DNA from: a virus
DNA length: 54,940 nt
Direction: 5' to 3' (one strand)
IMG/VR virus record: IMGVR_UViG_3300037264_005663
Span: 1-54,940 of that record
Part shown: positions 386-54,940 of the stretch, one piece after another
How positions within the stretch are numbered: position 1 is the stretch's first letter
Layout of the letters: each line of letters opens with the position of its first letter
Program-made: the position numbers and the translations under genes
Notes under the pieces: model-generated
Told to the model about the DNA's origin: nothing
Databases searched by the model: none
The model's input: only the letters and a program-made list of their open reading frames with translations

Positions 386-1459
386 ATGAGCATCCAAGCC
401 ATCGCCTGGGTATTTGAACGATCACCGAGCGTAGGGACAGAGCGTTTGGTGCTTTTGTCTATTGCCAACCACGTTGATCCAGACGGCGAAAATGCGTGGC
501 CCAAACTCGCAACCATCGCGGCGGAAGCCAACTGCTCGGTGAGAGTCGCACAACGAGCGATTCAGAGATTGGTAGAGCATGGCGAATTAGAAATCCATGG
601 GAGAGACCCCACATCGAGAGCAGATAGGGCGGGGCGGAAATTCAGAATGGCGCAATTCAATATATGGAGACGGGGTGACGCCGGAGACACCCCGCAACGG
701 AAACCAACCACCCAACCAGGGATTACTGACGAGATAATCGCCGCCATGGAACGGGGTGACGCCTATGACACCCCGCGCTTGGAACGGGGTGACGCCGAAA
801 GTATTGACGGGGTGACGCCGGTGGTAAGACGGGGTGACGCCGGTGGCGCTGGATTGCCTCGCGATATAAAGGAACGCGTGCGTCGGAGATCCGTCCCTAA
901 CCGTCCGGAACCGTCCGAAAGAAGCGCACCAGTGCGCCGTAAACGTTCAATCGGGGATCCAGCCCCACACGGATTCGACAAATTCTGGGAGGTCTGGGGC
1001 CGGCGCGAGGCGAAACTCGAAGCCATGAGGGCATGGGAGGAGCAGGGACTACATCTAAACCAGCAATTAGCCGCTCGAGTCGTATCGGCAGTAGAGGAGC
1101 AGGAACGCCGCGGGATGCTAGATTGGACGACTAGGGACCCCCGCACCAAACGTCTCCTAGTCCCACACCCTGCAACTTGGCTCCGCGGACAACGATGGGA
1201 GGACGAACCACCGAGATCGAAAGCCGAGAAACCACTACCACCGGAGCATCGCGCCCAACTCGATGCGTTGCGCCGCGAGAGCGAGCAACTTAGACTCGAG
1301 ATGTCGCGCCATGGAACAGGTGGTGTCTCACCTGAGGCACAGCAGAAGGTGACGGCTATCGTCTCGAGTATTAAAACCAAGATTCCGGATACGCCAACAC
1401 GCAACGCCGCGGAAGAAGTTGAACGTCTTAAACTCTGGGATAGGGACAGGACGAGATGA
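386..1459 (+). CDS. O-like replication initiator with N-terminal winged helix and internal iterons
   Basis: The 357-residue protein starts with an HTH_36-like winged-helix domain (residues ~1-85) of the type at the N-terminus of phage replication/DnaD-like proteins. Residues ~95-160 are low complexity with repeated RGDA motifs, encoded by five identical 13-bp DNA repeats. The C-terminal half carries a helicase-loader-like helical segment (FDKFWEVWGRREAKLEAMRAW, HPATWLRGQRWEDE), reminiscent of DnaD/DUF-type loader tails. The arrangement resembles lambda O, where the origin lies inside the initiator gene. The ATG at 386 follows the previous stop closely. The initiator role is inferred from domains and iterons. 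Confidence 0.75.
   Translation: MSIQAIAWVFERSPSVGTERLVLLSIANHVDPDGENAWPKLATIAAEANCSVRVAQRAIQRLVEHGELEIHGRDPTSRADRAGRKFRMAQFNIWRRGDAGDTPQRKPTTQPGITDEIIAAMERGDAYDTPRLERGDAESIDGVTPVVRRGDAGGAGLPRDIKERVRRRSVPNRPEPSERSAPVRRKRSIGDPAPHGFDKFWEVWGRREAKLEAMRAWEEQGLHLNQQLAARVVSAVEEQERRGMLDWTTRDPRTKRLLVPHPATWLRGQRWEDEPPRSKAEKPLPPEHRAQLDALRRESEQLRLEMSRHGTGGVSPEAQQKVTAIVSSIKTKIPDTPTRNAAEEVERLKLWDRDRTR
670..841 (+). repeat. Five 13-bp iterons inside the initiator gene: putative replication origin
   Basis: The exact 13-mer ACGGGGTGACGCC occurs at 670-682, 751-763, 784-796, 807-819 and 829-841. The first two copies extend into dyads GGGGTG-N10-CACCCC. Four copies share one reading frame, but the copy at 807 is in another frame and encodes a different peptide. 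The identity is therefore held at the DNA level and not just as a protein repeat. Iterons within an initiator gene are typical of lambdoid-type origins. No strongly AT-rich unwinding element is obvious immediately next to them. Confidence 0.75.
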
Positions 1460-2929: not shown

Positions 2930-3117
2930 TGGGGCACGCTTCTAACGTTCATCTTCCGCCGGAATCGGGGAAATATGAGGTCCGTTTCCGCGATTCGGGA
3001 ACGTGGTACGTGCGCTGGTGGAACGCCGAAGAGCAGCGCTGGTTGCTTGACGCCGGCGGCAGCCACGCGGCCTACGAACCGCGGATTGTGGTCGCGTGGA
3101 GGGAGGCGTCGGCGTGA
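2929..3117 (+). CDS. Small unknown protein
   Basis: A 62-residue protein whose ATG overlaps the previous stop (TGATG). It is rich in Trp, Arg and Tyr (YEVRFRDSGTWYVRWWN), suggesting a small beta-sheet fold. It overlaps the GTG start of the methyltransferase gene, so the three genes are translationally coupled. No family recognised. Confidence 0.6.
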   Translation: MGHASNVHLPPESGKYEVRFRDSGTWYVRWWNAEEQRWLLDAGGSHAAYEPRIVVAWREASA

Positions 3118-3740
3118 CGCCATACTATCAGGACGAATGGGCCACGATCTACCACGGGGACTGTAGGGAGGCGATGTCTGGGTTGGTGGCGGATGTTGTA
3201 GTGAGTGACCCGCCGTACGGATTAGGACTTGCTTCTTGGGATGAAGATGTGCCACCACAATCAGTTTTACAGCAATGTTTATCCGTTGCGTCTGGACCAT
3301 GCTTGTGGTTCGGCGCGGCGGTACCGCGCCGTTTGTTTGCTTTCGCCTCTTACGATCCTCCCCCCGATCTCTGTATCGTCTGGCACGCAACATTTTCTCT
3401 CGCTGCTACGGCTGCGCATGGCATGTATTACAGATGGCACCCCATCTGGCTATGGGCACGCGGCACCAAGATTGGATTAGAGCGTGATGTTATCGAGATA
3501 CCGTGTGATGGACACAACGGCTGGAGCCACCCGGGAACTAAGCCGCTTGCACTAATGAAGAGATTAGTGAAGGCGATAGAAGGCGGAACGATCCTCGACC
3601 CCTTCATGGGCTCCGGCACGACGTTGCGCGCCGCGAAAGACTTATGCCGCCGGTCCATCGGAATCGAGATTGAAGAGCACTACTGCGAGATCGCGGCACG
3701 ACGGTTGAGCCAAGAGGTGTTAGAGTTTGACCAAGCGTAA
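3114..3740 (+). CDS. Short beta-class DNA methyltransferase
   Basis: The catalytic motif DPPY (residues 32-35) precedes the SAM-binding motif DPFMGSGTT (162-170), the order of beta-class N6-adenine or N4-cytosine DNA methyltransferases. At 208 residues it is short and has little room for a target-recognition domain. I chose GTG at 3114 because it overlaps the preceding stop and has GGAGGGAGG just upstream. A PDDEXK nuclease gene overlaps its end, but no matched restriction enzyme is evident, so it is probably an orphan phage modification enzyme. If the DNA carries 2-aminoadenine, an adenine-specific enzyme would meet an unusual substrate. Confidence 0.85.
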   Translation: MTPYYQDEWATIYHGDCREAMSGLVADVVVSDPPYGLGLASWDEDVPPQSVLQQCLSVASGPCLWFGAAVPRRLFAFASYDPPPDLCIVWHATFSLAATAAHGMYYRWHPIWLWARGTKIGLERDVIEIPCDGHNGWSHPGTKPLALMKRLVKAIEGGTILDPFMGSGTTLRAAKDLCRRSIGIEIEEHYCEIAARRLSQEVLEFDQA

Positions 3741-5487: not shown

Positions 5488-5514
5488 TCACAGAAGTACA
5501 GGGGGGATAACATT

Positions 5515-7137
5515 GTGCGGCGTATCGTACTGATTTCTGGTCCTGTCGGATCGGGGAAGACGACTCTGGCCGACAGACTAACGTCGAGCTTCCGTCTGCA
5601 GATGGTCAAGAGTCGCGATGTGATTCGGTCACTCGAAGATATGCACAGCAAGGGCCGCGGGCTATTCCAGGCGGCCGGCGACCGGTTGGACCAGCATACT
5701 TCTGGCGGATGGCTCGCGAGCTGGATCGCACAGCAGGACGAGGCTGTATCGGACTCCGCGGAGTTCGTAATCGATGCTGTGCGCACGAGTCCGCAGATCG
5801 AGGGCATCCGCGAGAGGTTCGGGTCGCGCGTCGTACACGTTCACCTCACTGCATCAGACGGCGCCCTAAAGCAGCGCTATGGTTCACGTCACAACCGCGA
5901 CGTGGACGAGATGTCTTCGTACGAAAAGGTCAAGGCCAATGCCACAGAGCGCAACATCGGCAATTTGGCGGTGATCGCCGATCTGGTGATCAACACGGAG
6001 CGCTCCACGCCTGAGGACGTCTTCATTCGTGTGGCTGCGGCACTCGGATATTTCGGGCGAGGGACCGACCGTCTGGTGGATGTACTGGTCGGAGGACAAT
6101 ACGGCAGCGAGGGTAAGGGGCATATCACGTCGTACATCTCCGGAGAATACGGAGTGCTCGTGCGCGTTGGTGGCCCCAATGCCGGCCACAGCGTCTACCT
6201 CGAGGATTCCAGCAAATACGCACATCACCACCTCCCGTCAGGGACGCTGCATTCCAGTGCGCGACTTGTACTGGGGCCAGGCGCCACACTCTACGTGCCG
6301 AAGCTGTTGCGCGAGATCGCCACATGTAAGGTTGGAACTTCGCGTCTCTCTATCGACCCGCAGGCCATGATCATAGAGGATGGGGATCGGAAGGCTGAAG
6401 ACCGCACGCTGAAGAAGAGCATCGCCTCGACCGCGCAGGGCGTAGGATTCGCCACCGCGCGCAAGGTGCTCCGCGGTGCATTCCCCAGCCGAGTCCCTGT
6501 TCGTCTCGCGAGGGACATCCCCGAACTGCGCCCGTTCTTGTGTGAGACTCGTCGCGTGTTGGACGACGCGTTCCGCACCGGGACACGTGTCCTCCTCGAG
6601 GGGACCCAGGGGACGGGGCTCAGCATCCATCACGGCAGTTATCCGCACGTGACATCCCGCGATACTACAGTAAGCGGGTGCCTAGCGGACGCCGGTATTC
6701 CGCCCAGCCGCGTGCGCAGGATCATGATGGTCTGTCGTTCGTACCCAATCCGCGTGCAGGATTCCGTAACCGGGCAGACGTCGGGTCCGATGAGCCAGGA
6801 TCTGTCGTACACCGAACTCAGCCGGCGCAGTGGTATTCCATTGAGCGAATTGAAGGCAACGGAAACCACCACCACCACCAAGCGGCAGCGCCGGCTGTCG
6901 GAATTCGATTGGAGACTGTTTAGGGTGGCAACTTCTCTGAACGGACCGACAGATATTGCACTCACCTTCGCTGATTATGTGAGGGTCGAGAATCGCCAGG
7001 CACAACGTTTCGAACAGCTGACGAGCGAGACCATCCGGTTCATCGAGGAACTCGAGCGGGTGTCTGGGGCTCCGGTTTCGCTCATTTCGACGCGTTTCGG
7101 GCCGCGCGCTATTATAGATCGCCGCAGGTGGTCGTAA
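5515..7137 (+). CDS. purZ: P-loop kinase fused to PurZ-type 2-aminodeoxyadenylosuccinate synthetase
   Basis: Residues 1-180 are a P-loop nucleotide kinase-like domain (Walker A GPVGSGKT at 9-16). Residues 186-540 are an adenylosuccinate synthetase: GGQYGSEGKG (193-202), GGPNAGHS (219-226), LEGTQGTGLSIHHG (361-374), and TTTTTKRQRR plus FDW (451-466). PurA has a catalytic Asp in G-Q-W-G-D-E-G-K-G; here that position is Ser198, the replacement known in phage PurZ enzymes that join dGMP and aspartate towards 2-amino-dAMP. PurZ is usually single-domain, so the kinase fusion is unusual; it might phosphorylate dGMP, the product dZMP or another dNMP. The GTG start at 5515 follows AGGGGGG. The PurZ assignment is strong; the kinase substrate is unknown. 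Confidence 0.87.
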   Translation: MRRIVLISGPVGSGKTTLADRLTSSFRLQMVKSRDVIRSLEDMHSKGRGLFQAAGDRLDQHTSGGWLASWIAQQDEAVSDSAEFVIDAVRTSPQIEGIRERFGSRVVHVHLTASDGALKQRYGSRHNRDVDEMSSYEKVKANATERNIGNLAVIADLVINTERSTPEDVFIRVAAALGYFGRGTDRLVDVLVGGQYGSEGKGHITSYISGEYGVLVRVGGPNAGHSVYLEDSSKYAHHHLPSGTLHSSARLVLGPGATLYVPKLLREIATCKVGTSRLSIDPQAMIIEDGDRKAEDRTLKKSIASTAQGVGFATARKVLRGAFPSRVPVRLARDIPELRPFLCETRRVLDDAFRTGTRVLLEGTQGTGLSIHHGSYPHVTSRDTTVSGCLADAGIPPSRVRRIMMVCRSYPIRVQDSVTGQTSGPMSQDLSYTELSRRSGIPLSELKATETTTTTKRQRRLSEFDWRLFRVATSLNGPTDIALTFADYVRVENRQAQRFEQLTSETIRFIEELERVSGAPVSLISTRFGPRAIIDRRRWS

Positions 7138-7467
7138 ATGTCCATGAAGTGCCAATGTTGGCGTTGTGTGGACCACGAATCCCAGCCGAGGCATCCGATC
7201 ATGATCTTCGCGCAGGACATGGAGTCATCACTCGCGAAACACGACGAGGAACGCGGACCGACTGGATGGCGTAATAAGTCGCTCGCGTTTCTGTTCTATC
7301 GGTTGCATCAGGAAGTGCTGGAGTTGCACGAGGTCATCCTGTCCGGCGACAGTAGGAACATCCGGAGCGAAGCGGTGGATGTGGCCAATTTCGCCATGAT
7401 GATCTCAGATATCCAGCCAATCGTTGCGCACGTCTGTGACAACCAGGTGGCGGAGTCAGATGATTGA
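7138..7467 (+). CDS. MazG-like (d)NTP pyrophosphohydrolase, MazZ candidate
   Basis: This 109-residue all-alpha protein has the MazG metal-binding pattern E59xxE62...E78xxD81 (RLHQEVLELHEVI, SEAVDVANFAMM). It begins at the codon right after purZ's stop. In Z-genome phages, MazZ converts dGTP to dGMP, the PurZ substrate, so this position suggests the same role. The N-terminus has CQCWRC, a possible metal-binding addition. Generic phage MazG proteins look similar, so MazZ activity is inferred from context. Confidence 0.78.
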   Translation: MSMKCQCWRCVDHESQPRHPIMIFAQDMESSLAKHDEERGPTGWRNKSLAFLFYRLHQEVLELHEVILSGDSRNIRSEAVDVANFAMMISDIQPIVAHVCDNQVAESDD

Positions 7468-9401: not shown

Positions 9402-10004
9402 GTGAGAAAGATTCCGACTCTGTTTGTTCGTGACCCTTCGAACATGAAGCGCGTGACGCGTGACGTGACGCCGGGCTGTGAATGGGTGCTCGCTGGTGAA
9501 GGACGGGCCACGCGCAAGATTGACGGGACCGCGTGCATGGTACGAGATCGCGTGCTCTACAAGCGGTACGACGCGAAGAAGGGCCGAACTCCTCCGCAGG
9601 GATTCGAGCCCGCGCAGCCGGAGCCCGACCCGATTACGGGCCATTGGCCGGGCTGGCTCGCCGTGGGAGACGGCCCTGACGATCAGTACCACCAGGAAGC
9701 CCTGGCGAACGCTACCGATCTGTCGGATGGCACCTATGAGATGGTGGGGCCAAAGGTGCAAGGCAACCCGGAAGGGTACGAGGCGCACGAACTAATCCCA
9801 CACGGCGCGGATGAGATCCGCGATGTTGATCCTCGCTCCTACGATGCGCTGGCAGAATTCTTCTCTACGAACGCTATCGAGGGAATCGTTTGGTGGCACG
9901 AGGACGGGCGCATGGCGAAGGTGAAGCGCAGGGACTTCGGATTCGAGTGGCCGATCGCGCGAGACGACCGCGCTCCACGTCGTGTGTCACGGTGGGCGAA
10001 GTGA
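9402..10004 (+). CDS. ATP-dependent RNA ligase (nucleotidyltransferase superfamily)
   Basis: The 200-residue protein shows the ligase motifs in order: KIDG (39-42, Lys39 as the AMP-accepting lysine), YEMVGPKVQG (112-121, motif III-like), EGIVW (160-164, motif IV) and KVKR (173-176, motif V). It is small and lacks a clear C-terminal domain, like the DUF5565/RNA-ligase-1-type proteins of phages. These repair nicked RNA, often tRNA cut by host defences. The GTG start at 9402 follows GGAGGAG. DNA ligase activity is less likely because no OB domain is seen. Confidence 0.8.
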   Translation: MRKIPTLFVRDPSNMKRVTRDVTPGCEWVLAGEGRATRKIDGTACMVRDRVLYKRYDAKKGRTPPQGFEPAQPEPDPITGHWPGWLAVGDGPDDQYHQEALANATDLSDGTYEMVGPKVQGNPEGYEAHELIPHGADEIRDVDPRSYDALAEFFSTNAIEGIVWWHEDGRMAKVKRRDFGFEWPIARDDRAPRRVSRWAK

Positions 10005-16833: not shown

Positions 16834-17077
16834 TTCAATGACGCTAGACGGCACGAACGAAGTCTGTGTCTTTGTTGGTGGTGGGAGTTGGGACGGTCAT
16901 CGGTTTCTATTGTGGCGCCCGCTCCCTCTGGTGTTGAAGAGACCCATGTTCATAAACCAGGGAGTGATTCGGCCTCCAGGGGATCTCGATATCACGAAGT
17001 CCAATATCTTGATGCTCACGTTCCACCGTGATGGTCGCGATGACGAGGGTTGTGTCCGCTACGTCTACCAAGGATGA
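16826..17077 (+). CDS. GGPxDG-like small protein upstream of TerL
   Basis: An 83-residue protein with VFVGGGSWDGHRFLLWRPLP, a variant of the GGPxDG motif, and a C-terminal VRYVYQG. ATGA overlap with the terminase gene. Function unknown. Confidence 0.55.
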   Translation: MNDSMTLDGTNEVCVFVGGGSWDGHRFLLWRPLPLVLKRPMFINQGVIRPPGDLDITKSNILMLTFHRDGRDDEGCVRYVYQG

Positions 17078-18741
17078 TCCATCGCGCCGGCGGATTCCCA
17101 AATCTCCCCTTCCCGTCAGCCCCTGACGACGATCCCTTCTCGGTAGTCCTGCCCGACGAGGTAGAATCCGACGACGACATCCTTGGCGAGTACGAGCGCG
17201 AAGCCGTTCGTGTTGCGCGTGTCGATCCCGTCACCTTCCTCGAGTACGCGTTCGACTGGAAGTGCTGTCCATTCCACGAAGAGTGGCAAGATTTCCTCAC
17301 CGAGAACAGGCGCGCGCAGATCTTTGCTCCTACCGAGCACGGCAAGACCGGCCAGATATCGCAGGGCCGGGTGCTGTGGGAACTCGGCCGTAATCCAAAC
17401 CTCCGAATAGTCATCGCCTCCGCCGGCTCGACACACGCCTCGAAACCGGTCGGGCTCATTAAGCAGGCCATCCAAGTCAATCCGCGCGTCAGGCGCGTAT
17501 TCCCATGGCTGCGGCGCGAGTCGGATCCCAACCGTATGCGGGCGTGGGGTACGACCAAAGTCATTGTAGCGCGCCCCGACCTCACCAACCGCGATTTCTC
17601 GCTCCAGGCCCTCGGCGTTCACGGTATCATCGAGGGCGCCCGCGTCGATCTCCTGGTACTGGATGATGTCCTCAACAATCTCAACACGGCGACCGCCGAG
17701 CAACGCGAGGCAGTTATCCAGTGGCTCAAGAGCACCGCCATCCCGCGAACGACTGTGCGCGCTCGAGTCTGGTCAGTCGGTACGCCGTGGCACATCGACG
17801 ACGCCATGCACTGGATAGAGAAGAATCCGGAGTACGTCTCCAAGCGTTACGACGCGGATGGCGGACTTTGGCCCGAACTCGTTATGTCTGAGGGCCAGGA
17901 ATACGGATGGCCCAAGTGGCGACTCGAGCAGCGCAAGAACGAAATAGGCACGCTCGAGTATAATCGCTGCATGCGGTGCCGCGCGCTCTCCGACGAAATG
18001 CGCATCTTCCAGGTGTCACACATCAACCGGTGCATCGAACTCAGCGGGAAGCGCGAATTCGCGAGAACCTATCGCGACAGCAGGCTTTATGTGGTGACCG
18101 GGCAGGACCTCGGACATCGAAAGAAGCGAAGTTCCAATGAGACGGTGCTTTTCACTGGTGGAGTCGATTTACAGACGGGGATTTACGAGACCATTTCCAT
18201 AGACAGCATCCGCGGCGAGATCGCCGATATTCTGCGCCTCATGATAGACGTCTACATCCGATATGCACCGCAGGAGTACGTGGTCGAGAACAACGCTGCC
18301 CAAGCATACCTCGAGCAATTCATACGACGCAAGGACGAGATCCTGCAGATCATCGGCGCCAAGGCCGACCCCAGGACCCCACAGATTCTGAATTTCCTGC
18401 GAATCATCCCGTTTACCACCGGTCGCCAGAAGGCGGATACCGAATTCGGAATCCGGGCCATGACCGCGGACTTCGAACACGCGCGATGGCGCGTTCATGA
18501 CAACGACCAGACCCACAGGTGGCGAGACGAAATGGACCGATATACCGAGACGTCACACCCGGGAGATCGGGTGATGGGTGGATGGTTCTGCTGGTGGCGC
18601 TTGCGTCAAAAGTCGCAACGGAGTAAGATACGGGTACTCAAGAGGTCAGGGGGACCACCAGATGGCCAGCAAGAAATCGGGGGGAGCACGCAAGACCGCG
18701 GAATCCAACCCCGCAGAATCCGCACCCTCCGGGCCAGGTAG
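17074..18741 (+). CDS. terL: Terminase large subunit
   Basis: The 555-residue protein has an ATPase domain with a deviant Walker A (APTEHGKT, 85-92), Walker B (VDLLVLDDV, 191-199) and a coupling motif (WSVGTPWH, 233-240). The nuclease domain has acidic residues in VTGQDLGHRKK (Asp345) and VVENNAAQ (Glu405). It cuts and pumps the genome into the procapsid through the portal. The last ~27 residues are encoded in a frame that overlaps the portal gene start. ATG at 17074 overlaps the previous stop. Confidence 0.93.
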   Translation: MIHRAGGFPNLPFPSAPDDDPFSVVLPDEVESDDDILGEYEREAVRVARVDPVTFLEYAFDWKCCPFHEEWQDFLTENRRAQIFAPTEHGKTGQISQGRVLWELGRNPNLRIVIASAGSTHASKPVGLIKQAIQVNPRVRRVFPWLRRESDPNRMRAWGTTKVIVARPDLTNRDFSLQALGVHGIIEGARVDLLVLDDVLNNLNTATAEQREAVIQWLKSTAIPRTTVRARVWSVGTPWHIDDAMHWIEKNPEYVSKRYDADGGLWPELVMSEGQEYGWPKWRLEQRKNEIGTLEYNRCMRCRALSDEMRIFQVSHINRCIELSGKREFARTYRDSRLYVVTGQDLGHRKKRSSNETVLFTGGVDLQTGIYETISIDSIRGEIADILRLMIDVYIRYAPQEYVVENNAAQAYLEQFIRRKDEILQIIGAKADPRTPQILNFLRIIPFTTGRQKADTEFGIRAMTADFEHARWRVHDNDQTHRWRDEMDRYTETSHPGDRVMGGWFCWWRLRQKSQRSKIRVLKRSGGPPDGQQEIGGSTQDRGIQPRRIRTLRAR

Positions 18742-39792: not shown

Positions 39793-40577
39793 GCATCCAG
39801 ATCGTCAGCGTTGCCAACCGTATCCCGGACAGGAATCGTGAGCCGTATTATCGATTCCAGACTTTCGTGGACAGTCTCGCGCGGTTTGGTGTGAAGCCTG
39901 GCACGCACCCTGGAGACCTACTCATCCTCGGCATGAACGAGTGGTGGGGTGGTCTTATGACGAAGCCACGCCGGCTACGTGATTGGCTCCGGGGCGACGG
40001 GTGCAAGTGCGACACCCTCATCGTGTGCGACGCGTTCGATATCGTATTCTCGGCGCCACCGGCTGAGATCGAGGCGGCGTACGAGCGGTGGGAAGGGAGG
40101 CCCGGGGCGTCGGGCCCCTCCGTCGTGTTCAACGCGGAGAGGGGCCTCTTCCCGCGTCCGGAACTCGCACACGCCTTCTCCGACAACGGGCTGCCGTGGC
40201 GATATCTGAACTCGGGGTTCTTTATTGGCCCGCCGGCGCAGATCCTCGCGCTGCTCGAGGCGATGTGGCTCGACGATATCGCCGACGATTACCGGAGCCC
40301 CGATCAGCTTCACGGCGGCGGCGGGCGGATGATTCATCCGAACGACCAGGGCTGGTATCAGCTCATGTACGCCGCCCAGGTGGTCCCCATGGATTTGGAC
40401 TCCCGCGGTGAGATCGCGCAATGTCTGAGCGCTTGCACACTCGATGAATTCGACCTCTCAGGTCCGCGGATTCGTAACCTCGTGACCGGCACCGAGCCTC
40501 TGGTGTGGCACTTCAACGGCGGGAGCAAGAACGATCTCATGCCCGTGTTCCTGCAGAAGTGGGGGATTCCTACATGA
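39789..40577 (+). CDS. Glycosyltransferase, PLOD/GT25-like
   Basis: A 262-residue protein with a DxD-type motif in LIVCDAFDIVFSAPPAEIEA, and LNSGFFIGPPAQILALLEAM, like procollagen-type glycosyltransferases. These add hexose to hydroxylysine in eukaryotes; viral and bacterial relatives modify diverse targets. It opens the sugar/methyl island and overlaps the tail gene (ATGA), so it is expressed with virion proteins. Confidence 0.75.
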   Translation: MSIQIVSVANRIPDRNREPYYRFQTFVDSLARFGVKPGTHPGDLLILGMNEWWGGLMTKPRRLRDWLRGDGCKCDTLIVCDAFDIVFSAPPAEIEAAYERWEGRPGASGPSVVFNAERGLFPRPELAHAFSDNGLPWRYLNSGFFIGPPAQILALLEAMWLDDIADDYRSPDQLHGGGGRMIHPNDQGWYQLMYAAQVVPMDLDSRGEIAQCLSACTLDEFDLSGPRIRNLVTGTEPLVWHFNGGSKNDLMPVFLQKWGIPT

Positions 40578-41107
40578 ACCTCCTCGAACTCGCGGGGCTG
40601 ATCGGGGTTGAAGGATTCCTGCATTGCAACGAACTCGAGAAGCTCGTCGAACTCGCGGTAAACCGAGATGTGCTGGAGATCGGGTCCTACCGCGGACTCT
40701 CGGCGTGGGGCATGGGGATGGTCGCCCGCAGCCTCACTTGTGTTGACACCTTCCGCGCCGCGAGCGACGGCCAACGACAGACTGGTAGCCACACGACTCT
40801 CGATGCGTTCAATCTCGCGGTGCGCCGATATAACCACGTGAAGGTATATTCAGTGTCGAGCGAGCGCGCCATAGATCTCGTCGTGGATGACTTCGATATG
40901 GTGTTCGTCGATGCCATGCACACCTATCCCGAAGTCATCGGCGACGTTCAACGTTGGCGTCCACACGTGCGGCCCGGCGGGCTTCTAGTGTTCCACGATT
41001 ACGGGCATGATGCCTTCCCGGGTGTGAAAGAGGCGGTGGACGAGTGCTTCGGTCCGGCGCCGGATGGAACAGTCGAGGTAACGTTGCGCTGGATCGAGAT
41101 CAATTAG
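40574..41107 (+). CDS. SAM-dependent methyltransferase 1 (Methyltransf_24-like)
   Basis: A 177-residue protein with the SAM site VLEIGSYRGLSAWGMGMVA, an acidic motif DFDMVFVDAMHTYPEV and GGLLVFHDYGH, as in class I O-methyltransferases. ATGA overlap with the glycosyltransferase gene. Probable substrate: a sugar or glycan made in the same cluster. Confidence 0.75.
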   Translation: MNLLELAGLIGVEGFLHCNELEKLVELAVNRDVLEIGSYRGLSAWGMGMVARSLTCVDTFRAASDGQRQTGSHTTLDAFNLAVRRYNHVKVYSVSSERAIDLVVDDFDMVFVDAMHTYPEVIGDVQRWRPHVRPGGLLVFHDYGHDAFPGVKEAVDECFGPAPDGTVEVTLRWIEIN

Positions 41108-41658
41108 TGTCGATTACTCACTGGTGGGACCGTTCGGTACATGGGATCCCCGTCGTCCGTGAAATCTTCATCGAAACAGGATGCAAAGCGGGAGACACAT
41201 TGTGGCAGGCGAAAGACAAATTCCCGACATGCCATTCGATCGAGATCAATGGGGCCGCGTATGCCGCTTGTCTGGATCGTTTCCGCGATTTCCCGCATGT
41301 CCAGATCCATCTCGGCGACAGTCGCGACGTGCTCCCGCGCATTATTGATCCCACGCGTCCCACCACATTCTATCTCGATGCGCACTGCGAGGGGGCGCCC
41401 TCGACAGTCCCAGAGGCCGACACCGAGTGTCCGCTCCTCGATGAGCTCGATATCATCGTGTATGCGCGATGGACCACACGCCCCACAATTATCATCGACG
41501 ACATTCATATGTTCCACCCTGGATATTGGCGAGATCCCCATAGTAATTGGAGATTGTTTACCCCAGCAGATTGGCCTCGGTTTGAGCAGATCTGTGAACT
41601 CCTGGCGGATTATCGTTTCCACGAAGACACCGAGAATCGGGTTGGTCTGTGGGTCTGA
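41107..41658 (+). CDS. SAM-dependent methyltransferase 2
   Basis: A 183-residue protein (FIETGCKAGDTLWQAKDKFP, CHSIEINGAAYAACLDRF, RPTTFYLDAHCEG, PTIIIDDIHMF), a Rossmann methyltransferase similar to small sugar methyltransferases. GTG start shares a base with the previous stop. Lacks a clear target domain. Confidence 0.65.
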   Translation: MSITHWWDRSVHGIPVVREIFIETGCKAGDTLWQAKDKFPTCHSIEINGAAYAACLDRFRDFPHVQIHLGDSRDVLPRIIDPTRPTTFYLDAHCEGAPSTVPEADTECPLLDELDIIVYARWTTRPTIIIDDIHMFHPGYWRDPHSNWRLFTPADWPRFEQICELLADYRFHEDTENRVGLWV

Positions 41659-42317
41659 TCCGCTCCCGGTGGCCGGGGCTCCTCGTGAACGAAGACAGAG
41701 TGATTGCAGATGAAGGAGCGCTACAGGAGTGTTACGTTGACGATGTATATGGCATTCGTGGATTGCGGGACGTCGAATTCGCACTGGATGTGGGTGCGCA
41801 CATAGGTGGAGCTTCGGCGCTGCTCCATGAATGTTTTCCGAGTGCCCGCATCGTTGCGGTGGAGTGTTGCCCCGAAAACATGCCGTGCCTCGAAGAGAAT
41901 GTCGGGCACTTCGCTGATGTTCTTCATGGTGCTGTGACTTATGAAACTGGCAATATCGTGCTGGCGAGCACGGTCTACGAGGGATGCCGAACGTCTGGGA
42001 GTAGTGTGGTCGTCACGCGCGAACAGTGGGAAACGAAGCGGGTTCCGTGGACTTGGGATCCTGATGATTACCATCTGGACGATCGTCCATTGCTCAGGTG
42101 GACCATCGAGGACATCGTAAAACTAGTGGGCGGACAACAAATCGATCTCTTGAAGCTCGATTGCGAGGGAAGCGAGATCAGCATCCTCATGGGGTGTTCT
42201 ATCTTCGATCGGATTCGAACGATCGTCGGCGAATACCACGACGCCGCGGCATTTACCGCCGTGGCGCCGCCGGGTACCGAGATGTGGGACGGACATTTGT
42301 TTCGAGTGTCGCGATGA
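41649..42317 (+). CDS. FkbM-family methyltransferase
   Basis: A 222-residue protein with FALDVGAHIGGASALLHECF, RIVAVECCPENMPCLEENVG and IDLLKLDCEGSEISILMG, the FkbM signature. FkbM enzymes O-methylate sugars and polyketides. GTG start within the previous gene. Confidence 0.8.
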   Translation: MGLIRSRWPGLLVNEDRVIADEGALQECYVDDVYGIRGLRDVEFALDVGAHIGGASALLHECFPSARIVAVECCPENMPCLEENVGHFADVLHGAVTYETGNIVLASTVYEGCRTSGSSVVVTREQWETKRVPWTWDPDDYHLDDRPLLRWTIEDIVKLVGGQQIDLLKLDCEGSEISILMGCSIFDRIRTIVGEYHDAAAFTAVAPPGTEMWDGHLFRVSR

Positions 42318-42436
42318 TCTATCGGTGTCACCCCCATACCGGGCCATCAATCTGGGAGTTCCTGATCGTCCTCGCGGCATTGTTGGCTGTGGGGTCGCTC
42401 TTGGGTTGGCTGACTGGCAGGAAGATGTTCGGATGA
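42314..42436 (+). CDS. Small membrane protein in the glycan cluster
   Basis: A 40-residue protein with a transmembrane helix (IWEFLIVLAALLAVGSLLGW) and a short basic tail. ATGA overlaps on both sides. Could anchor the cluster's enzymes to the membrane, but this is a guess. Confidence 0.5.
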   Translation: MIYRCHPHTGPSIWEFLIVLAALLAVGSLLGWLTGRKMFG

Positions 42437-43929
42437 AGCCGGCGGTCTGCCTCATCACTCCACCGTCAACGTTCCTCCTCGACGAACGGGTTTTCGTGTC
42501 GTTGGGCATCCTGCGGGTGGCTGCGGTTCTCGAACGGGCCATGTTTCACGTGGAACATCTGGACCTATCGGGGATCGAGAATTACGAGGAAGCGGTGTCC
42601 GACTATGCCTCGCGCACTACAGCCACGGTTTTCGGGCTGACAGCCACGACGCCCCAGATGCCGGCGACCACCAAGATCCTGTCTCGACTGCGCCGGGGCC
42701 GTCCTGGCGTCCGGCTGGTATTGGGTGGCCCCCACGCTACTCTCGTCGCAGCCGCGCGCAGGAGAGAGGCCAAGGCGGGCACTCCGGGGCGGGCCACGGT
42801 CGCCTTCCAGAATATGTCTTCGTTGGTTGATGTGGTTGTCGCCGGCGACGGCGAGGGCGCCATATTCCGCGCTCTTGAGGATGAGCCACCGGCGTTCATT
42901 GATGCCGATGATCCGAAGTCTGATCTGTGGCTTACTGACGAATCTTATGAGACGTTGCCATTCCCGGCTCGGCACCTCGTGGACATGGACTCCTATCACT
43001 ATTCGGTCGAGGGAGAACGGGCAACCTCCATGATCGCGCAGTTGGGGTGCCCGTTCGAGTGCTCGTTTTGCGGCGGCCGGCTCTCCTCTATGTTGCGCAG
43101 AATCCGGACACGCAGCACTTGGTCGGTCGTCGCGGAAATTCGGCATCTCTTTGAAAGTTACGGTGTCCGCGGGATCATGATGTACGACGACGAGTTGAAC
43201 GTCAACAAACAATGCGTCCAACTCATGCGGGCCATCGCGGATCTGGGACGCGATCTAGGGATCGAGTTTAGGCTCCGCGGATTCATCAAGGCGGAACTGT
43301 TCACCGAGGAACAGGCCGAGGCCATGCATGCTGCGGGTTTCCGGTGGATCCTCGTGGGTTTCGAATCGGGATCGCCACGCGTGCTCACGAACATCAACAA
43401 GAAAGCCACACGCGAAGACAATTCGCGCTGCCTCGCGATTGCGCGCCGGCATGGGCTCAAGGTGAAGGCGCTCATGTCGATCGGTCATCCGGGGGAAAAC
43501 TTCGAAACAGTCCAACAGACGCGCGATTGGTTACTCGAGGAGAAGCCTGACGATTTCGACTGCACGGTGATTTCTTGCTATCCTGGGACTCCGTACTATG
43601 ATCACGCCATACAAACGTCTCCCGATGTCTGGACTTACACTGTGCCGCGCACCGGGGACAAACTGCACGCGGTGGACGTCGATTACAGTACCACCGCGGA
43701 CGCATACAAGGGAGTCCCAGGCGACTACCGCGCTTACGTTTTCACCGACTACTTGAGAAGCCAAGATCTAGTCGCCTTGCGTGATTCGCTCGAGTCCGAT
43801 GTGCGCAGGATTCTTGGGATCCCGTTCAACTCCGGCGCTCCTGGCGTGAGATATGAGGCCTCAATGGGACAATTTCCAGGTCATATTCTGCGTCACTCAA
43901 TAAACACTGGGGTGGCAGCGTGCGCGTAG
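42433..43929 (+). CDS. B12-binding-type radical SAM enzyme
   Basis: The 498-residue protein has an N-terminal cobalamin-binding-like Rossmann domain (VFGLTATTPQMPATTKIL, RLVLGGPHATL) and a radical SAM core with CPFECSFC (residues ~207-214, CxxxCxxC). Later come LVGFESGSPRVLTNINKKAT and SIGHPGENFE. Class B radical SAM enzymes methylate unactivated carbon or phosphorus atoms. Such an enzyme is rare in phages. Its neighbours suggest a modified sugar or glycan as substrate. Confidence 0.85.
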   Translation: MKPAVCLITPPSTFLLDERVFVSLGILRVAAVLERAMFHVEHLDLSGIENYEEAVSDYASRTTATVFGLTATTPQMPATTKILSRLRRGRPGVRLVLGGPHATLVAAARRREAKAGTPGRATVAFQNMSSLVDVVVAGDGEGAIFRALEDEPPAFIDADDPKSDLWLTDESYETLPFPARHLVDMDSYHYSVEGERATSMIAQLGCPFECSFCGGRLSSMLRRIRTRSTWSVVAEIRHLFESYGVRGIMMYDDELNVNKQCVQLMRAIADLGRDLGIEFRLRGFIKAELFTEEQAEAMHAAGFRWILVGFESGSPRVLTNINKKATREDNSRCLAIARRHGLKVKALMSIGHPGENFETVQQTRDWLLEEKPDDFDCTVISCYPGTPYYDHAIQTSPDVWTYTVPRTGDKLHAVDVDYSTTADAYKGVPGDYRAYVFTDYLRSQDLVALRDSLESDVRRILGIPFNSGAPGVRYEASMGQFPGHILRHSINTGVAACA

Positions 43930-44921
43930 CGTTCCTCCTGTCAAATCTCGGCGGCTCGCCTCTCACCATCGGGCTCGAGCGCGGCATGCGCCTCCTCGGT
44001 CATCAAGTTGTGGACTACACGCCGGATGGAAACTGGGACCTTTTGTTGGTGTTTAATCAATGCGCCCACGTTACGAACTACGCCTATCCTCCGCTCCCAC
44101 CGAAAAATCACGGCCGGCGCATTGCTTTCATTGATACCGCCGAGTACGGATGGACGAAACGAGTGAAGGAGCCAATCGGCACCTACTGGAATGCGTTCGC
44201 TGAGGGCAGCATGACACACGACACCAAGAATCCTGAACAGCAGACGCTGTTGCGCGATTGGCTCGATTGCCAGTCGTTCCCATACTTCGTGCGGGAATTC
44301 TGGAATGCGTGGGCGTTCCCGGCGGCGTACCATCCGATCGATTATCCGCTCTACCAGCCAAGCGCGCACCGGCGGGCGCCAAAACGTGATGAATATCTCA
44401 GGAGGACAACCCAAGTCGCGTGCCTGTGGGGACTGTCTAATCCGTGGAGGGTGAACCTCACAGCGGAGATGGAGGCGTCTCCAGTCGTTAAGGATGTTTA
44501 CGTCATCGAGCGTGATGGTCCGCGGCTCCCACAATTCGGACCGCGCGGATATTTCGAGCGCCTCGAGGCCGCTCGTTGTTCGGTGTCCTTTGACGGCTAC
44601 GGCTCCGGATCGTTTCGCATGACGGAGGTCCTCTGTAGGACTCTGCTCATGCAGGGCCCGCTCGCCATCAAAACCCACGCACCACTCATCCACGGTGACA
44701 CGTGTTGGGCCTACTGCGTATGGGTGGACGGCGAGCATTATGTCCGCAGCGACCTCGTCGAACAGATTCAGGCGGCGATGGCTGACCCAGAGAGGTGCTT
44801 CGAGATTCATCATCGCGGGTTCAATCATTGTATGGCGCATCTTACCGAGCGGGCGACCGCGGAGTATGTGCTCCGCGTGATTGACGCTCACGACTTGAAC
44901 CAAGTGACGAGGATCTATTAG
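43920..44921 (+). CDS. Glycosyltransferase-like protein (CgeB-type)
   Basis: A 333-residue protein with MRVAFLLSNLGGSPLTIGLE at the N-terminus and a C-terminal half with CSVSFDGYGSGSFRMTEVLC and PLAIKTHAPLIHGDTCWAYC, where the nucleotide-sugar site lies in GT-B fold glycosyltransferases. Similar to CgeB/spore-coat-type proteins. GTG start in the previous gene. Confidence 0.65.
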   Translation: MRVAFLLSNLGGSPLTIGLERGMRLLGHQVVDYTPDGNWDLLLVFNQCAHVTNYAYPPLPPKNHGRRIAFIDTAEYGWTKRVKEPIGTYWNAFAEGSMTHDTKNPEQQTLLRDWLDCQSFPYFVREFWNAWAFPAAYHPIDYPLYQPSAHRRAPKRDEYLRRTTQVACLWGLSNPWRVNLTAEMEASPVVKDVYVIERDGPRLPQFGPRGYFERLEAARCSVSFDGYGSGSFRMTEVLCRTLLMQGPLAIKTHAPLIHGDTCWAYCVWVDGEHYVRSDLVEQIQAAMADPERCFEIHHRGFNHCMAHLTERATAEYVLRVIDAHDLNQVTRIY

Positions 44922-44934
44922 TGGGGGAACATCA

Positions 44935-45480
44935 ATGACACTCCGATCTGCGCTTCCTTCCGATACTCGCTATCGCAGCGAGACTGACGTGTACCGGCAT
45001 GTGGTGCTGCCGTGGATTCCGCAGGAAGGAAACGGGCTGGACATTGGGCATGGGGGAGATCCGATAGTTCCATGGGCGGCTACCGTGGACAAGGGCGATG
45101 TCCACATGTCGAATTGCGGCGAACACCCGACGAATTTCTCCGGCGACGCATCGCATCTCCCCTGGTTCACGGATGGAGCGCTGGACTGGATCTACAGCTC
45201 CCACTGCCTCGAGGATTTCGAGGACACGGAATCCGTACTGCGTGAGTGGTTGCGTGTACTACGGGTGGGAGGACGCCTTGTCCTTCTTCTGCCTGACCAG
45301 CGACGCTACGTCGCGCACTGCATCGCTGACGGCACAGAGCCCAACGGCGCCCATAAACATGGAGATTTTGGGCTCACATATATGGAAGCCATCGCTGCTC
45401 GAATCGGCGGTTTGCGCGAGGTCTTTCGTTGGGACCCAGGCGAGGGATACAACTTCGCCGTGGCTTACGAGAAAATCTGA
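44935..45480 (+). CDS. Class I methyltransferase (Methyltransf_11-like)
   Basis: A 181-residue protein with GNGLDIGHGGDPIVPWAATV, DGALDWIYSSHCLEDFEDTE and LRVLRVGGRLVLLLPDQRRY. This is the methyltransferase-11 pattern seen in glycan and rhamnan synthesis. ATG 44935 follows GGGGG. Fourth methyltransferase of the island. Confidence 0.75.
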   Translation: MTLRSALPSDTRYRSETDVYRHVVLPWIPQEGNGLDIGHGGDPIVPWAATVDKGDVHMSNCGEHPTNFSGDASHLPWFTDGALDWIYSSHCLEDFEDTESVLREWLRVLRVGGRLVLLLPDQRRYVAHCIADGTEPNGAHKHGDFGLTYMEAIAARIGGLREVFRWDPGEGYNFAVAYEKI

Positions 45481-53394: not shown

Positions 53395-54940
53395 ATGAGG
53401 CTCCTGTTCAACGGTGGGCGGTTCGAGTTCGCCTGCCACTACGAGGACCGCTTCGTCCCCAAAGAGGCGGGGTTCCGCTGGGACAAAGTGGCGCGCGTGT
53501 GGTACACCGATAACCAACGCAACGCATCGCGGCTCATCGAATACGCGAGTGACGACTACGTTCGGTCTGTGCTCGAATCGGTGCGCGAGGAGGTGGCCGA
53601 GGCCGTCAATATGTCGAGCGCGGCGGACGCCGACATTGAGATTCCGGCGCCGGCAGGCTACGAGTACATGGGCTTCCAGCGCGCTGGGATTGCGTTCGCA
53701 CTCCGGCGCAAGGGGACCCTCATCGGCGACGAGATGGGGCTTGGCAAGACCATCCAGGCCATCGGAGTCATGAACGCCGACGTGGCAACCCACCGCTCCC
53801 TCATCATTTGCCCAGCATCACTCAAACTGAATTGGCAGCGCGAACTCGGCCGCTGGTTGGTACGGCCGACTATGGTGTGCCTGGCCACCCCCAAGGAGTT
53901 CCCGCGGCTCGAGCCCGACTGGCCGAAGCGAGACGCCGTGGTGATCGTGAATTACGACGTCCTATACAAGCACGAAAAATGGATTCGCGCGGTGGAGTGG
54001 GACCTCATCGTGGCTGACGAAGCTCACTACATCAAGAATCCGAAGGCGCGGCGGTCGCGCGTGCTCCTGGGCTACCGTGGCAACCCAGCGATCAAGGGTG
54101 CGAGAGGCCCCTGGATTCCAGGTATCGACGCGCGGCGGGTGATCTTCATGACCGGGACTCCCATCGTGAACCGCCCAAGTGAACTCTGGTCGATCATCCA
54201 CAGGCTCGATTCCGAGACTTGGAGATCGTGGCGAGACTACGTCGTACGCTACTGCGGATTCACGCGGAACCGGTGGGGCAGCGATGTCAGCGGTGCGTCG
54301 AATCTCGATGAGTTGCAGATGAAGCTCCGCTCCAGTGTCCTGGTGCGCCGCCTCAAGAAAGACGTGCTGAAGGAATTGCCGGCGAAGCGGCGCCAAGTCA
54401 TCGAAATTCCGGCGACTGTCGAGACGCAGCACCTCGTGGCGCGCGAGCGTGCGGCCATCGCGGCCAACGAGGACCGAATTCTGCAGCTCAAGATCGCGGT
54501 GGAGTTGGCCAAGGCATGTGAGGATGACGAGGCATATCGCGTAGCGGTGCGCGCGATGTCCCGCGGGATTATGACGGATTTCACGGAGATTTCGAAGTTG
54601 CGCCACCAGACGGCATTGGCCAAAGTGGGCGACGTCATCGAGCACCTGAAGGAGTTGGTTGACGAGGAGGGCGTCAAGGTCGTGTGTTTCGCACATCACA
54701 AGGATGTAATCGCCCAGATCGCCGGCGCCTTCAAGGGTAAGTCGGTCGTGCTCACCGGCGACACCTCACTCGAGGATCGCCAGCGCGCGGTTGATCGATT
54801 CCAGAAGGACGGGGCTATCCGGCTCTTCGTGGGATCGATCACTGCCGCGGGCGTGGGACTCACGTTGACGGCGTCCTCTAGTGTGGTGTTCGCCGAATTG
54901 GACTGGGTTCCCGGGAACGTGACACAGGCCGAGGATCGCT
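53395..54940 (+). CDS. SNF2-family helicase (SMARCAL1/HARP-like), 3' end cut by window
   Basis: The frame from ATG 53395 stays open to the window edge (515 codons). It has an N-terminal HARP-like region (FACHYEDRFVPKEAGFRWDK), Walker A (GDEMGLGKTIQAI), the DEAH box ADEAHYIKNPKARRS, motif III (FMTGTPIVNRPSELW) and motif V-like (VGSITAAGVGLTLTASSSVV). SNF2 helicases of phages aid replication or recombination, possibly fork remodelling. GGAG lies just before the start. It belongs to the P4 unit. Confidence 0.9.
   Translation, partial: MRLLFNGGRFEFACHYEDRFVPKEAGFRWDKVARVWYTDNQRNASRLIEYASDDYVRSVLESVREEVAEAVNMSSAADADIEIPAPAGYEYMGFQRAGIAFALRRKGTLIGDEMGLGKTIQAIGVMNADVATHRSLIICPASLKLNWQRELGRWLVRPTMVCLATPKEFPRLEPDWPKRDAVVIVNYDVLYKHEKWIRAVEWDLIVADEAHYIKNPKARRSRVLLGYRGNPAIKGARGPWIPGIDARRVIFMTGTPIVNRPSELWSIIHRLDSETWRSWRDYVVRYCGFTRNRWGSDVSGASNLDELQMKLRSSVLVRRLKKDVLKELPAKRRQVIEIPATVETQHLVARERAAIAANEDRILQLKIAVELAKACEDDEAYRVAVRAMSRGIMTDFTEISKLRHQTALAKVGDVIEHLKELVDEEGVKVVCFAHHKDVIAQIAGAFKGKSVVLTGDTSLEDRQRAVDRFQKDGAIRLFVGSITAAGVGLTLTASSSVVFAELDWVPGNVTQAEDR

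What the first reader, a model, noticed from the sequence alone, without database searches (positions are those of the whole stretch)
5515..7467. Kinase-PurZ fusion next to a MazG: candidate 2-aminoadenine (Z) genome with a built-in kinase
The synthetase half has Ser198 where PurA has its catalytic Asp, the change that marks phage PurZ. The N-terminal P-loop kinase is an unusual addition and could carry PurZ substrate or product to the next phosphorylation step (dGMP, dZMP). MazG follows at the next codon, like MazZ. A DatZ-type HD dATPase or a DpoZ polymerase is not visible here, so the state of the genome is open.
Basis: partly seen in the sequence, partly recalled or inferred. Interest (0 to 1): 0.88.

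Follow-up and report, generated by a model that had tools for sequence, protein, structure and literature searches.

The report
Kinase-fused PurZ-like enzyme in phage
This phage carries an enzyme that probably starts making the unusual DNA letter 2-aminoadenine (Z), with a phosphate-adding kinase built in; the same two-part enzyme turns out to be widespread in bacteria and archaea, beside a gene that looks like a DNA-attacking toxin, which no paper we could search describes.

Summary
Window 5515-7137 (+) is one 540-aa gene: an NMP-kinase-like domain fused to a PurA/PurZ-type synthetase with Ser198 at PurA's catalytic Asp. A 109-aa MazG-like ORF starts at the next codon. It is related to the ORF lying between PurZ and DatZ in Vibrio Z-phages and directly follows a PurZ in other viral contigs. 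Relatives of it sit beside kinase-PurZ in two other phages. A Z-nucleotide pathway is therefore well supported. A Z genome is not shown: no DatZ, DpoZ or PolA was found, but the record is cut at both ends. The kinase fusion is not a phage peculiarity. It forms a third clade beside phage PurZ and PurZ0, found in many bacteria and some archaea. There, 66 of 75 testable loci place a DUF7002 gene, which folds like the guanine ADP-ribosyltransferase DarT1, directly downstream, often with an IrrE-type peptidase upstream. The window and eight other phage-like records keep kinase-PurZ but lack DUF7002. The enzyme meets PurZ's Ser signature, but falls below NCBI's PurZ cut-off and outside the PurZ and PurZ0 clades, so it is filed as a new variant. 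Substrates are untested.

The parts
5515..7137 (+). kinase::PurZ-like fusion gene, 540 aa, GTG start, TAA stop
   Evidence: full-length homologues with the same architecture
5500..5506 (+). Shine-Dalgarno-like AGGGGGG, 8 nt before the GTG
   Evidence: sequence read directly
5515..6066 (+). N-terminal NMP-kinase-like domain (residues 1-184)
   Evidence: AAA_18 E 1.9e-9; AlphaFold2 pLDDT 94.6; Foldseek/VIA best 3lw7 AdkA-like bound to AMP, Z 18.8, rmsd 2.8, 165 aligned; profile vs PDB: adenylate kinases
5539..5562 (+). P-loop GPVGSGKT (residues 9-16)
   Evidence: G9, G14, K15 invariant in 60 kinase domains
6076..7134 (+). adenylosuccinate-synthetase-type domain (residues 188-540), PurZ-like
   Evidence: phrog_1211 5.1e-70; nearest solved: Pyrococcus-type PurA 1.7e-52, PurZ 7odx/6fm1 about 5e-32
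6106..6108 (+). Ser198 codon, at the place of PurA catalytic Asp13
6973..6975 (+). Asp487 codon, at the place of PurA Asp333 (guanine recognition); Asn in phiVC8-type PurZ
   Evidence: D in window, all fusions and PurZ0 examples; N in the five PurZ phages checked
7138..7467 (+). 109-aa MazG-like ORF, MazZ-2 related
   Evidence: AF_0060 2p06 E 1.7e-4; family HMM hits the ORF between purZ and datZ in Vibrio phages VP5 and K227 (E 2e-9, 4e-9); directly follows or overlaps PurZ in L193, L204, L233
2144..2929 (+). NDT-like (DUF1937) + MazG fusion, 261 aa; candidate dATP/dGTP pool enzyme
   Evidence: DUF1937 4e-18; phrog_355 nucleoside 2-deoxyribosyltransferase 2e-11 and phrog_715 MazG-like 2e-6; homologues L017:2677-3381 adjacent to kinase-PurZ and L267 about 350 nt after kinase-PurZ
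386..1459 (+). O-like replication initiator (context)
   Evidence: phrog_270 9.5e-21
17050..18741 (+). terminase large subunit (shows that the record is a tailed phage)
   Evidence: phrog_38 1.8e-56

Best explanation
The gene encodes a bifunctional 2-amino-nucleotide enzyme. The C-terminal half joins (d)GMP and aspartate, probably using GTP since Asp487 is kept, to give N6-succino-2-amino-(d)AMP, which the host lyase PurB turns into (d)ZMP. The N-terminal NMP kinase raises this product, or the substrate side of the same pathway, to the diphosphate. The adjoining MazZ-2-like protein (7138-7467) would make dGMP from dGTP. The NDT-MazG fusion (2144-2929) would remove dATP in two steps, dATP to dAMP to adenine, taking the role that DatZ has in PurZ phages and DmtZ-DutZ has in PurZ0 phages. 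The output would be dZTP for the phage's own DNA. Shown here: domain architecture, active-site residues, gene order, family relations, predicted kinase fold. Inferred: every substrate, flux to dZTP, and Z in the virion DNA.
For: Ser198 and the PurZ profile; intact kinase motifs and NMP-kinase fold; MazZ-2-related ORF at the next codon, and the same purZ-mazG order in L193, L204, L233 and the Vibrio Z-phages VP5 and K227. NDT-MazG fusions occur in three of nine phage-like records with kinase-PurZ (window, L017, L267), next to or near PurZ in two, while no INPHARED phage matches the fusion over 80% of its length. PMC12884076 describes fused NDT-DutZ proteins in PurZ0 phages that hydrolyse dATP to adenine and dGTP to dGMP. 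PolA-type genes occur in most of the other phage records with the fusion. Some actinobacterial operons add MazG and PurB-like lyase genes to the same kinase-PurZ, which spells out one pathway.
Against: No DatZ-type HD protein and no PolA/DpoZ in the record, though it is cut at both ends. An O-like initiator hints at use of the host replisome. The MazG-109 family is common in phages with no PurZ: 76 of 80 retrieved relatives show none nearby. The NDT and MazG domains are not sequence-homologous to DmtZ or DutZ. The fusion clade is mostly cellular and linked to an ADP-ribosyltransferase, so its ancestral role may not be Z-DNA.
Confidence: 0.52

Rival explanations
1. Counter-defence: the phage carries kinase-PurZ as an antidote or mimic of a cellular DarT1-like toxin module, for instance by making or removing a nucleotide that controls the DUF7002 ADP-ribosyltransferase, and does not put Z into its DNA.
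For: In cells the fusion is directly followed by DUF7002 in 66 of 75 testable genome loci and often preceded by an IrrE-type peptidase, recognisably with a macro domain in some. DUF7002 folds like DarT1 (Z 10.9). The window, L013 and the phage lineages L017/L267 and L014/L272/L273 carry the synthetase without DUF7002. A phage antitoxin mimic against DarTG is documented (PMC11481870).
Against: The window pairs the gene with MazZ-2-like and NDT-MazG genes, which fit nucleotide-pool work. No evidence that kinase-PurZ acts as an antitoxin.
Confidence: 0.22
2. Ordinary purine metabolism: a PurA-like enzyme acting on IMP that boosts AMP/dATP supply.
For: Nearest solved structures are archaeal PurA (1.7e-52); NCBI archaeal PurA model scores higher than its PurZ model (273 vs 202 bits).
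Against: Catalytic Asp replaced by Ser, the change held by all phage PurZ in PMC12884076 and by every fusion recovered here (the search patterns favoured Ser); both NCBI cut-offs missed.
Confidence: 0.12
3. The enzyme makes a 2-amino nucleotide that is not for DNA (free nucleotide, signal, or ribonucleotide ZTP).
For: Same enzyme family is found mainly in cells, beside a toxin-like gene; S-2L PurZ shows no structural selection on the ATP 2'-OH (PMC8342488).
Against: Gene neighbours in phages point to deoxynucleotides.
Confidence: 0.14

Closest known systems
Phage PurZ (phiVC8, S-2L; phrog_1211, NF038379)
   Same: PurA fold, Ser at Asp13, conserved His/Gln/Thr/Arg active site; MazZ-2-type MazG next door as in phiVC8-type phages
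   Different: Separate clade (fusions one clade, SH-aLRT 99); below NF038379 cut-off (202 vs 300 bits); keeps Asp487 where phiVC8-type PurZ has Asn; carries an N-terminal kinase; no DatZ found
Phage PurZ0 (Wayne, Ghobes, Archimedes)
   Same: Ser at Asp13, Asp333-equivalent kept; an NDT-like domain fused to a dNTP hydrolase in the same genome
   Different: No clustering with PurZ0 in the tree; hydrolase is MazG and not dUTPase-like; NDT domain not sequence-related to DmtZ
Archaeal-type PurA (5k7x, 2d7u)
   Same: Highest sequence similarity in PDB (1.7e-52)
   Different: Catalytic Asp absent; N-terminal kinase
AdkA-like / adenylate kinases (3lw7)
   Same: Fold of the N-terminal half, P-loop, NMP-kinase layout
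   Different: About 20% identity; substrate unknown; fused to a synthetase
DarTG1 / DarTG2 toxin-antitoxin systems (cellular relatives only)
   Same: DUF7002 folds like DarT1; an upstream gene can carry a macro domain
   Different: A kinase-PurZ gene lies in the operon; IrrE-type peptidase; none of this is in the window

Membership tests
PurZ (succino-amino-deoxyadenylate synthase) | Ser in place of PurA Asp13 | tested here: met
   Ser198
PurZ (succino-amino-deoxyadenylate synthase) | match to the phage PurZ profile phrog_1211 | tested here: met
   E 5.1e-70
PurZ (succino-amino-deoxyadenylate synthase) | NCBIfam NF038379 curated cut-off (300 bits) | tested here: not met
   202 bits
PurZ (succino-amino-deoxyadenylate synthase) | lies inside the phage PurZ or PurZ0 clade | tested here: not met
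   nested in the kinase-fusion clade (SH-aLRT 99 for the clade); quick trees, no bootstrap
PurZ (succino-amino-deoxyadenylate synthase) | dGMP as substrate | not testable with these tools
   needs enzyme assay
PurA | catalytic Asp13 | tested here: not met
   Ser198
MazZ-2 | MazG-like protein related to the ORF between purZ and datZ of phiVC8-type phages, next to purZ | tested here: met
   family HMM E 2e-9 and 4e-9 to VP5 and K227 ORFs; next codon after purZ
MazZ-2 | dGTP to dGMP activity | not testable with these tools
   -
Z-cluster phage (purZ, mazZ, datZ) | DatZ HD dATPase | tested here: inconclusive
   none found but record is cut at both ends
Z-cluster phage (purZ, mazZ, datZ) | DpoZ / PolA polymerase (not universal, S-2L lacks it) | tested here: inconclusive
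   none found; record incomplete
DmtZ-DutZ | sequence homology to DmtZ/DutZ | tested here: not met
   only the domain idea (NDT-like + dNTP hydrolase) is shared
NMP kinase superfamily | P-loop and NMP-kinase fold | tested here: met
DarTG (cellular neighbours) | DarT-type fold of DUF7002 | tested here: met
   8baq DarT1 Z 10.9, rmsd 3.4, 161 aligned; invariant His19 and Glu193
DarTG (cellular neighbours) | DarG macro or NADAR antitoxin partner | tested here: inconclusive
   Macro found by Pfam in L018; simple motif seen in only 10 of 58 IrrE-type neighbours

The most novel reading that the evidence does not exclude
Bacteria and archaea carry a widespread, undescribed conflict system that makes 2-aminoadenine nucleotides (kinase-PurZ, with MazG and PurB in some operons) and pairs them with a DarT1-like ADP-ribosyltransferase, whose known relative attacks the guanine amino group. 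Phages have taken the kinase-PurZ more than once, without the toxin, for a third kind of Z-DNA pathway that uses an NDT-MazG fusion in place of DatZ.
Probability: 0.25. Interest if true: 0.93.

Novelty: new variant of a known kind. Interest (0 to 1): 0.74.

Why it matters
Z-DNA biosynthesis has been described in phages, with an archaeal PurA-like origin proposed. If this clade makes Z nucleotides, Z chemistry exists in ordinary bacterial and archaeal genomes, possibly as part of immunity, and phage Z genomes could be partly drawn from it. A built-in kinase would also fill the step that known Z phages leave to host enzymes. The cellular operons can be tested in culturable strains.

Tried and rejected
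A phage-specific kinase add-on: rejected, full-length fusions are common in cells. DatZ, DpoZ, DutZ and DmtZ homologues in the window by tblastn and Pfam: none. Single-sequence searches gave little: the kinase half alone had no INPHARED match, and the first IMG/VR scan found no relative. Circular closure of the record: no terminal repeats, and the reading frame across the junction does not look like one protein. Calling MazG-109 diagnostic of Z by itself: rejected, most relatives have no PurZ nearby. Known defence system: PADLOC 2.0.0 has no model for the fusion or DUF7002, and no paper in the library mentions DUF7002. Substrate from the kinase fold: Foldseek rows (adenylate, UMP/CMP, shikimate, phosphomevalonate kinases) do not decide it. 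L015, L018 and L268, listed as viral, carry DUF7002; the fusion of L018 is identical to one on a Roseibium chromosome; treated as cellular islands.

Full report
OBSERVATION. Window 5515-7137 is a single 540-aa gene with a ribosome-binding site. Residues 188-540 are an adenylosuccinate-synthetase domain: PF00709 E 3.7e-55, PurZ family phrog_1211 E 5.1e-70. Residues 1-184 are a P-loop kinase: AAA_18 1.9e-9. Ser198 stands where PurA has its catalytic Asp; the other catalytic positions examined (Asn222, His225, Gln365, Thr380, Arg413, Arg459/460) are conserved with PurZ, and all but a few also with PurA. The ORF 7138-7467 starts at the next codon.

KINASE HALF. A 60-row alignment has nine invariant residues, including P-loop Gly9, Gly14 and Lys15. 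The AlphaFold2 model (pLDDT 94.6) is closest to an AMP-bound adenylate-kinase-related protein, 3lw7 (VIA Z 18.8, rmsd 2.8, 165 residues), followed by adenylate, UMP/CMP and phosphomevalonate kinases. An NMP-type kinase is a fair reading; the acceptor is unknown. That it acts on dZMP or dGMP is inference from the fusion.

SYNTHETASE HALF. It falls below NCBI's cut-offs for PurZ (202 of 300 bits) and for archaeal PurA (273 of 368). It keeps Asp487, the PurA Asp333 position known for guanine recognition (established knowledge). The PurZ0 examples also have Asp there, while the five PurZ phages checked (four phiVC8/SH-Ab-like plus Bacillus phage vB_BpsS-140) have Asn. I predict GTP as donor. PMC12884076 states the ATP/GTP preferences of the two phage groups in an order that seems at odds with its own introduction, so I do not lean on it.

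MAZG NEIGHBOUR. The 109-aa protein matches AF_0060 and belongs to a viral MazG-like family with a strong ExxE...EaaDVANFAMMIaD pattern. The family HMM hits the ORF between PurZ and the HD protein in Vibrio phages VP5 and K227 (E 2.2e-9 and 3.8e-9). PMC8342488 places MazZ-2 of phiVC8-like phages between datZ and purZ. In contigs L193, L204 and L233 a family member overlaps or directly follows PurZ; in L193 and L204 an HD protein follows. But 76 of 80 retrieved relatives have no PurZ nearby, so the family alone is not diagnostic.

A SECOND MAZG. 2144-2929 joins an NDT-like DUF1937 domain (phrog_355 nucleoside 2-deoxyribosyltransferase) to MazG. Phage L017 has such a fusion directly after kinase-PurZ (30.6% over 255 aa to the window, E 2.8e-21), and L267 has one about 350 nt after its kinase-PurZ. 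No INPHARED phage covers 80% of it. PMC12884076 shows that fused NDT-DutZ of phage Wayne turns dATP into adenine and dGTP into dGMP. The window protein is not homologous to DmtZ or DutZ by tblastn, so this is likeness of design, not membership. None of ten virus records searched, nine of them with the fusion, has an HD-family match.

THE FUSION IS CELLULAR. Plasmids of rhizobia carry full-length fusions at 43-48% identity. The scan patterns contained GSEGKG, so Ser conservation among them is partly by selection. All fusions form one clade (SH-aLRT 99) apart from phage PurZ and PurZ0; the window sits in a set of mostly acidobacterial and myxobacterial fusions (93-94). Viruses with the fusion need three to four label changes on the tree; deep nodes are weak, so the direction of transfer is not settled.

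THE CELLULAR NEIGHBOURHOOD. Of 77 distinct genome loci, 66 of the 75 with enough flank have DUF7002 (PF22531, E about 1e-70) directly downstream, and 45 of 72 have an IrrE-type peptidase directly upstream, which in L018 also has a macro domain. The DUF7002 model (pLDDT 97.5) is closest to DarT1 (8baq, Z 10.9, rmsd 3.4, 161 residues), then other DarT proteins. [quoted passage not shown] Some actinobacterial loci add a MazG and a PurB-like lyase (Amycolatopsis L134, Mycobacterium gordonae L141), which with kinase-PurZ would complete a route from dGTP to Z nucleotides. PADLOC and the paper library hold nothing on DUF7002 or this fusion. The window and eight other phage-like records lack DUF7002; the three virus records that have it look like chromosomal islands.

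WHAT FOLLOWS. Best reading: a third, kinase-bearing PurZ-like lineage whose phage members are set in nucleotide-pool genes, most likely for Z nucleotides. Whether the phage genome contains Z cannot be decided: the record is cut at both ends and lacks any visible Z-selective polymerase or DatZ. The main rival is counter-defence against the cellular module.

Noticed in passing
L104-L182 (genome loci), e.g. L134:5987-10316, L141:4573-10295: Recurrent cellular operon: (PurB-like lyase), (MazG), IrrE-type peptidase with macro domain in some, kinase-PurZ, DarT1-like DUF7002. Not in PADLOC 2.0.0 and no paper found.
   Followed up: partly
L099:5995-8057 (Sinorhizobium medicae plasmid): Unfused PurZ-like gene with the Ser signature, overlapped by a gene that reads like a dUTPase/dCTP-deaminase-type fold (reading by eye), next to a ThiF/E1-like gene and a UvrD helicase; possibly a cellular counterpart of PurZ0 + DutZ.
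   Followed up: no
L094:10344-10892 and relatives (12 loci): YfbR-like HD protein beside the rhizobial kinase-PurZ modules, usually on the opposite strand; a DatZ-like role is conceivable.
   Followed up: partly
L150:581-1183, L168:2205-2786, L268:9995-10552: A standalone paralogue of the kinase half sits in the same operon as the fusion in 12 loci.
   Followed up: partly
L014:9124-12114, L273:13624-16587: Phages with kinase-PurZ encode a 987-996 aa protein whose N-terminus reads like a uracil-DNA glycosylase, followed by a family A polymerase domain.
   Followed up: no
L272 and L328 (one 56,034-base contig): The kinase-PurZ gene is split across the two contig ends, which suggests a circularly permuted complete genome.
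   Followed up: no
L100:5384-12947 (Rhizobium leguminosarum plasmid): PurA-like gene with the normal Asp in a cluster with folE, purB, queE, queC, IMP dehydrogenase and nitrile hydratase: looks like 7-deazapurine synthesis.
   Followed up: no
window 9402-10004: RNA ligase family (phrog_14301 E 4.5e-75; Pfam RLIG1 1.6e-14).
   Followed up: no
window 40505-45480: Run of methyltransferases (Methyltransf_24, FkbM, Methyltransf_11) and a B12-binding radical SAM protein after the tail genes.
   Followed up: no
window 3096-3740: N6/N4-type DNA methyltransferase between the NDT-MazG and kinase-PurZ genes.
   Followed up: no
window 53395-54939: SNF2-like helicase frame (read from motifs) running off the right end; the record is incomplete.
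   Followed up: partly
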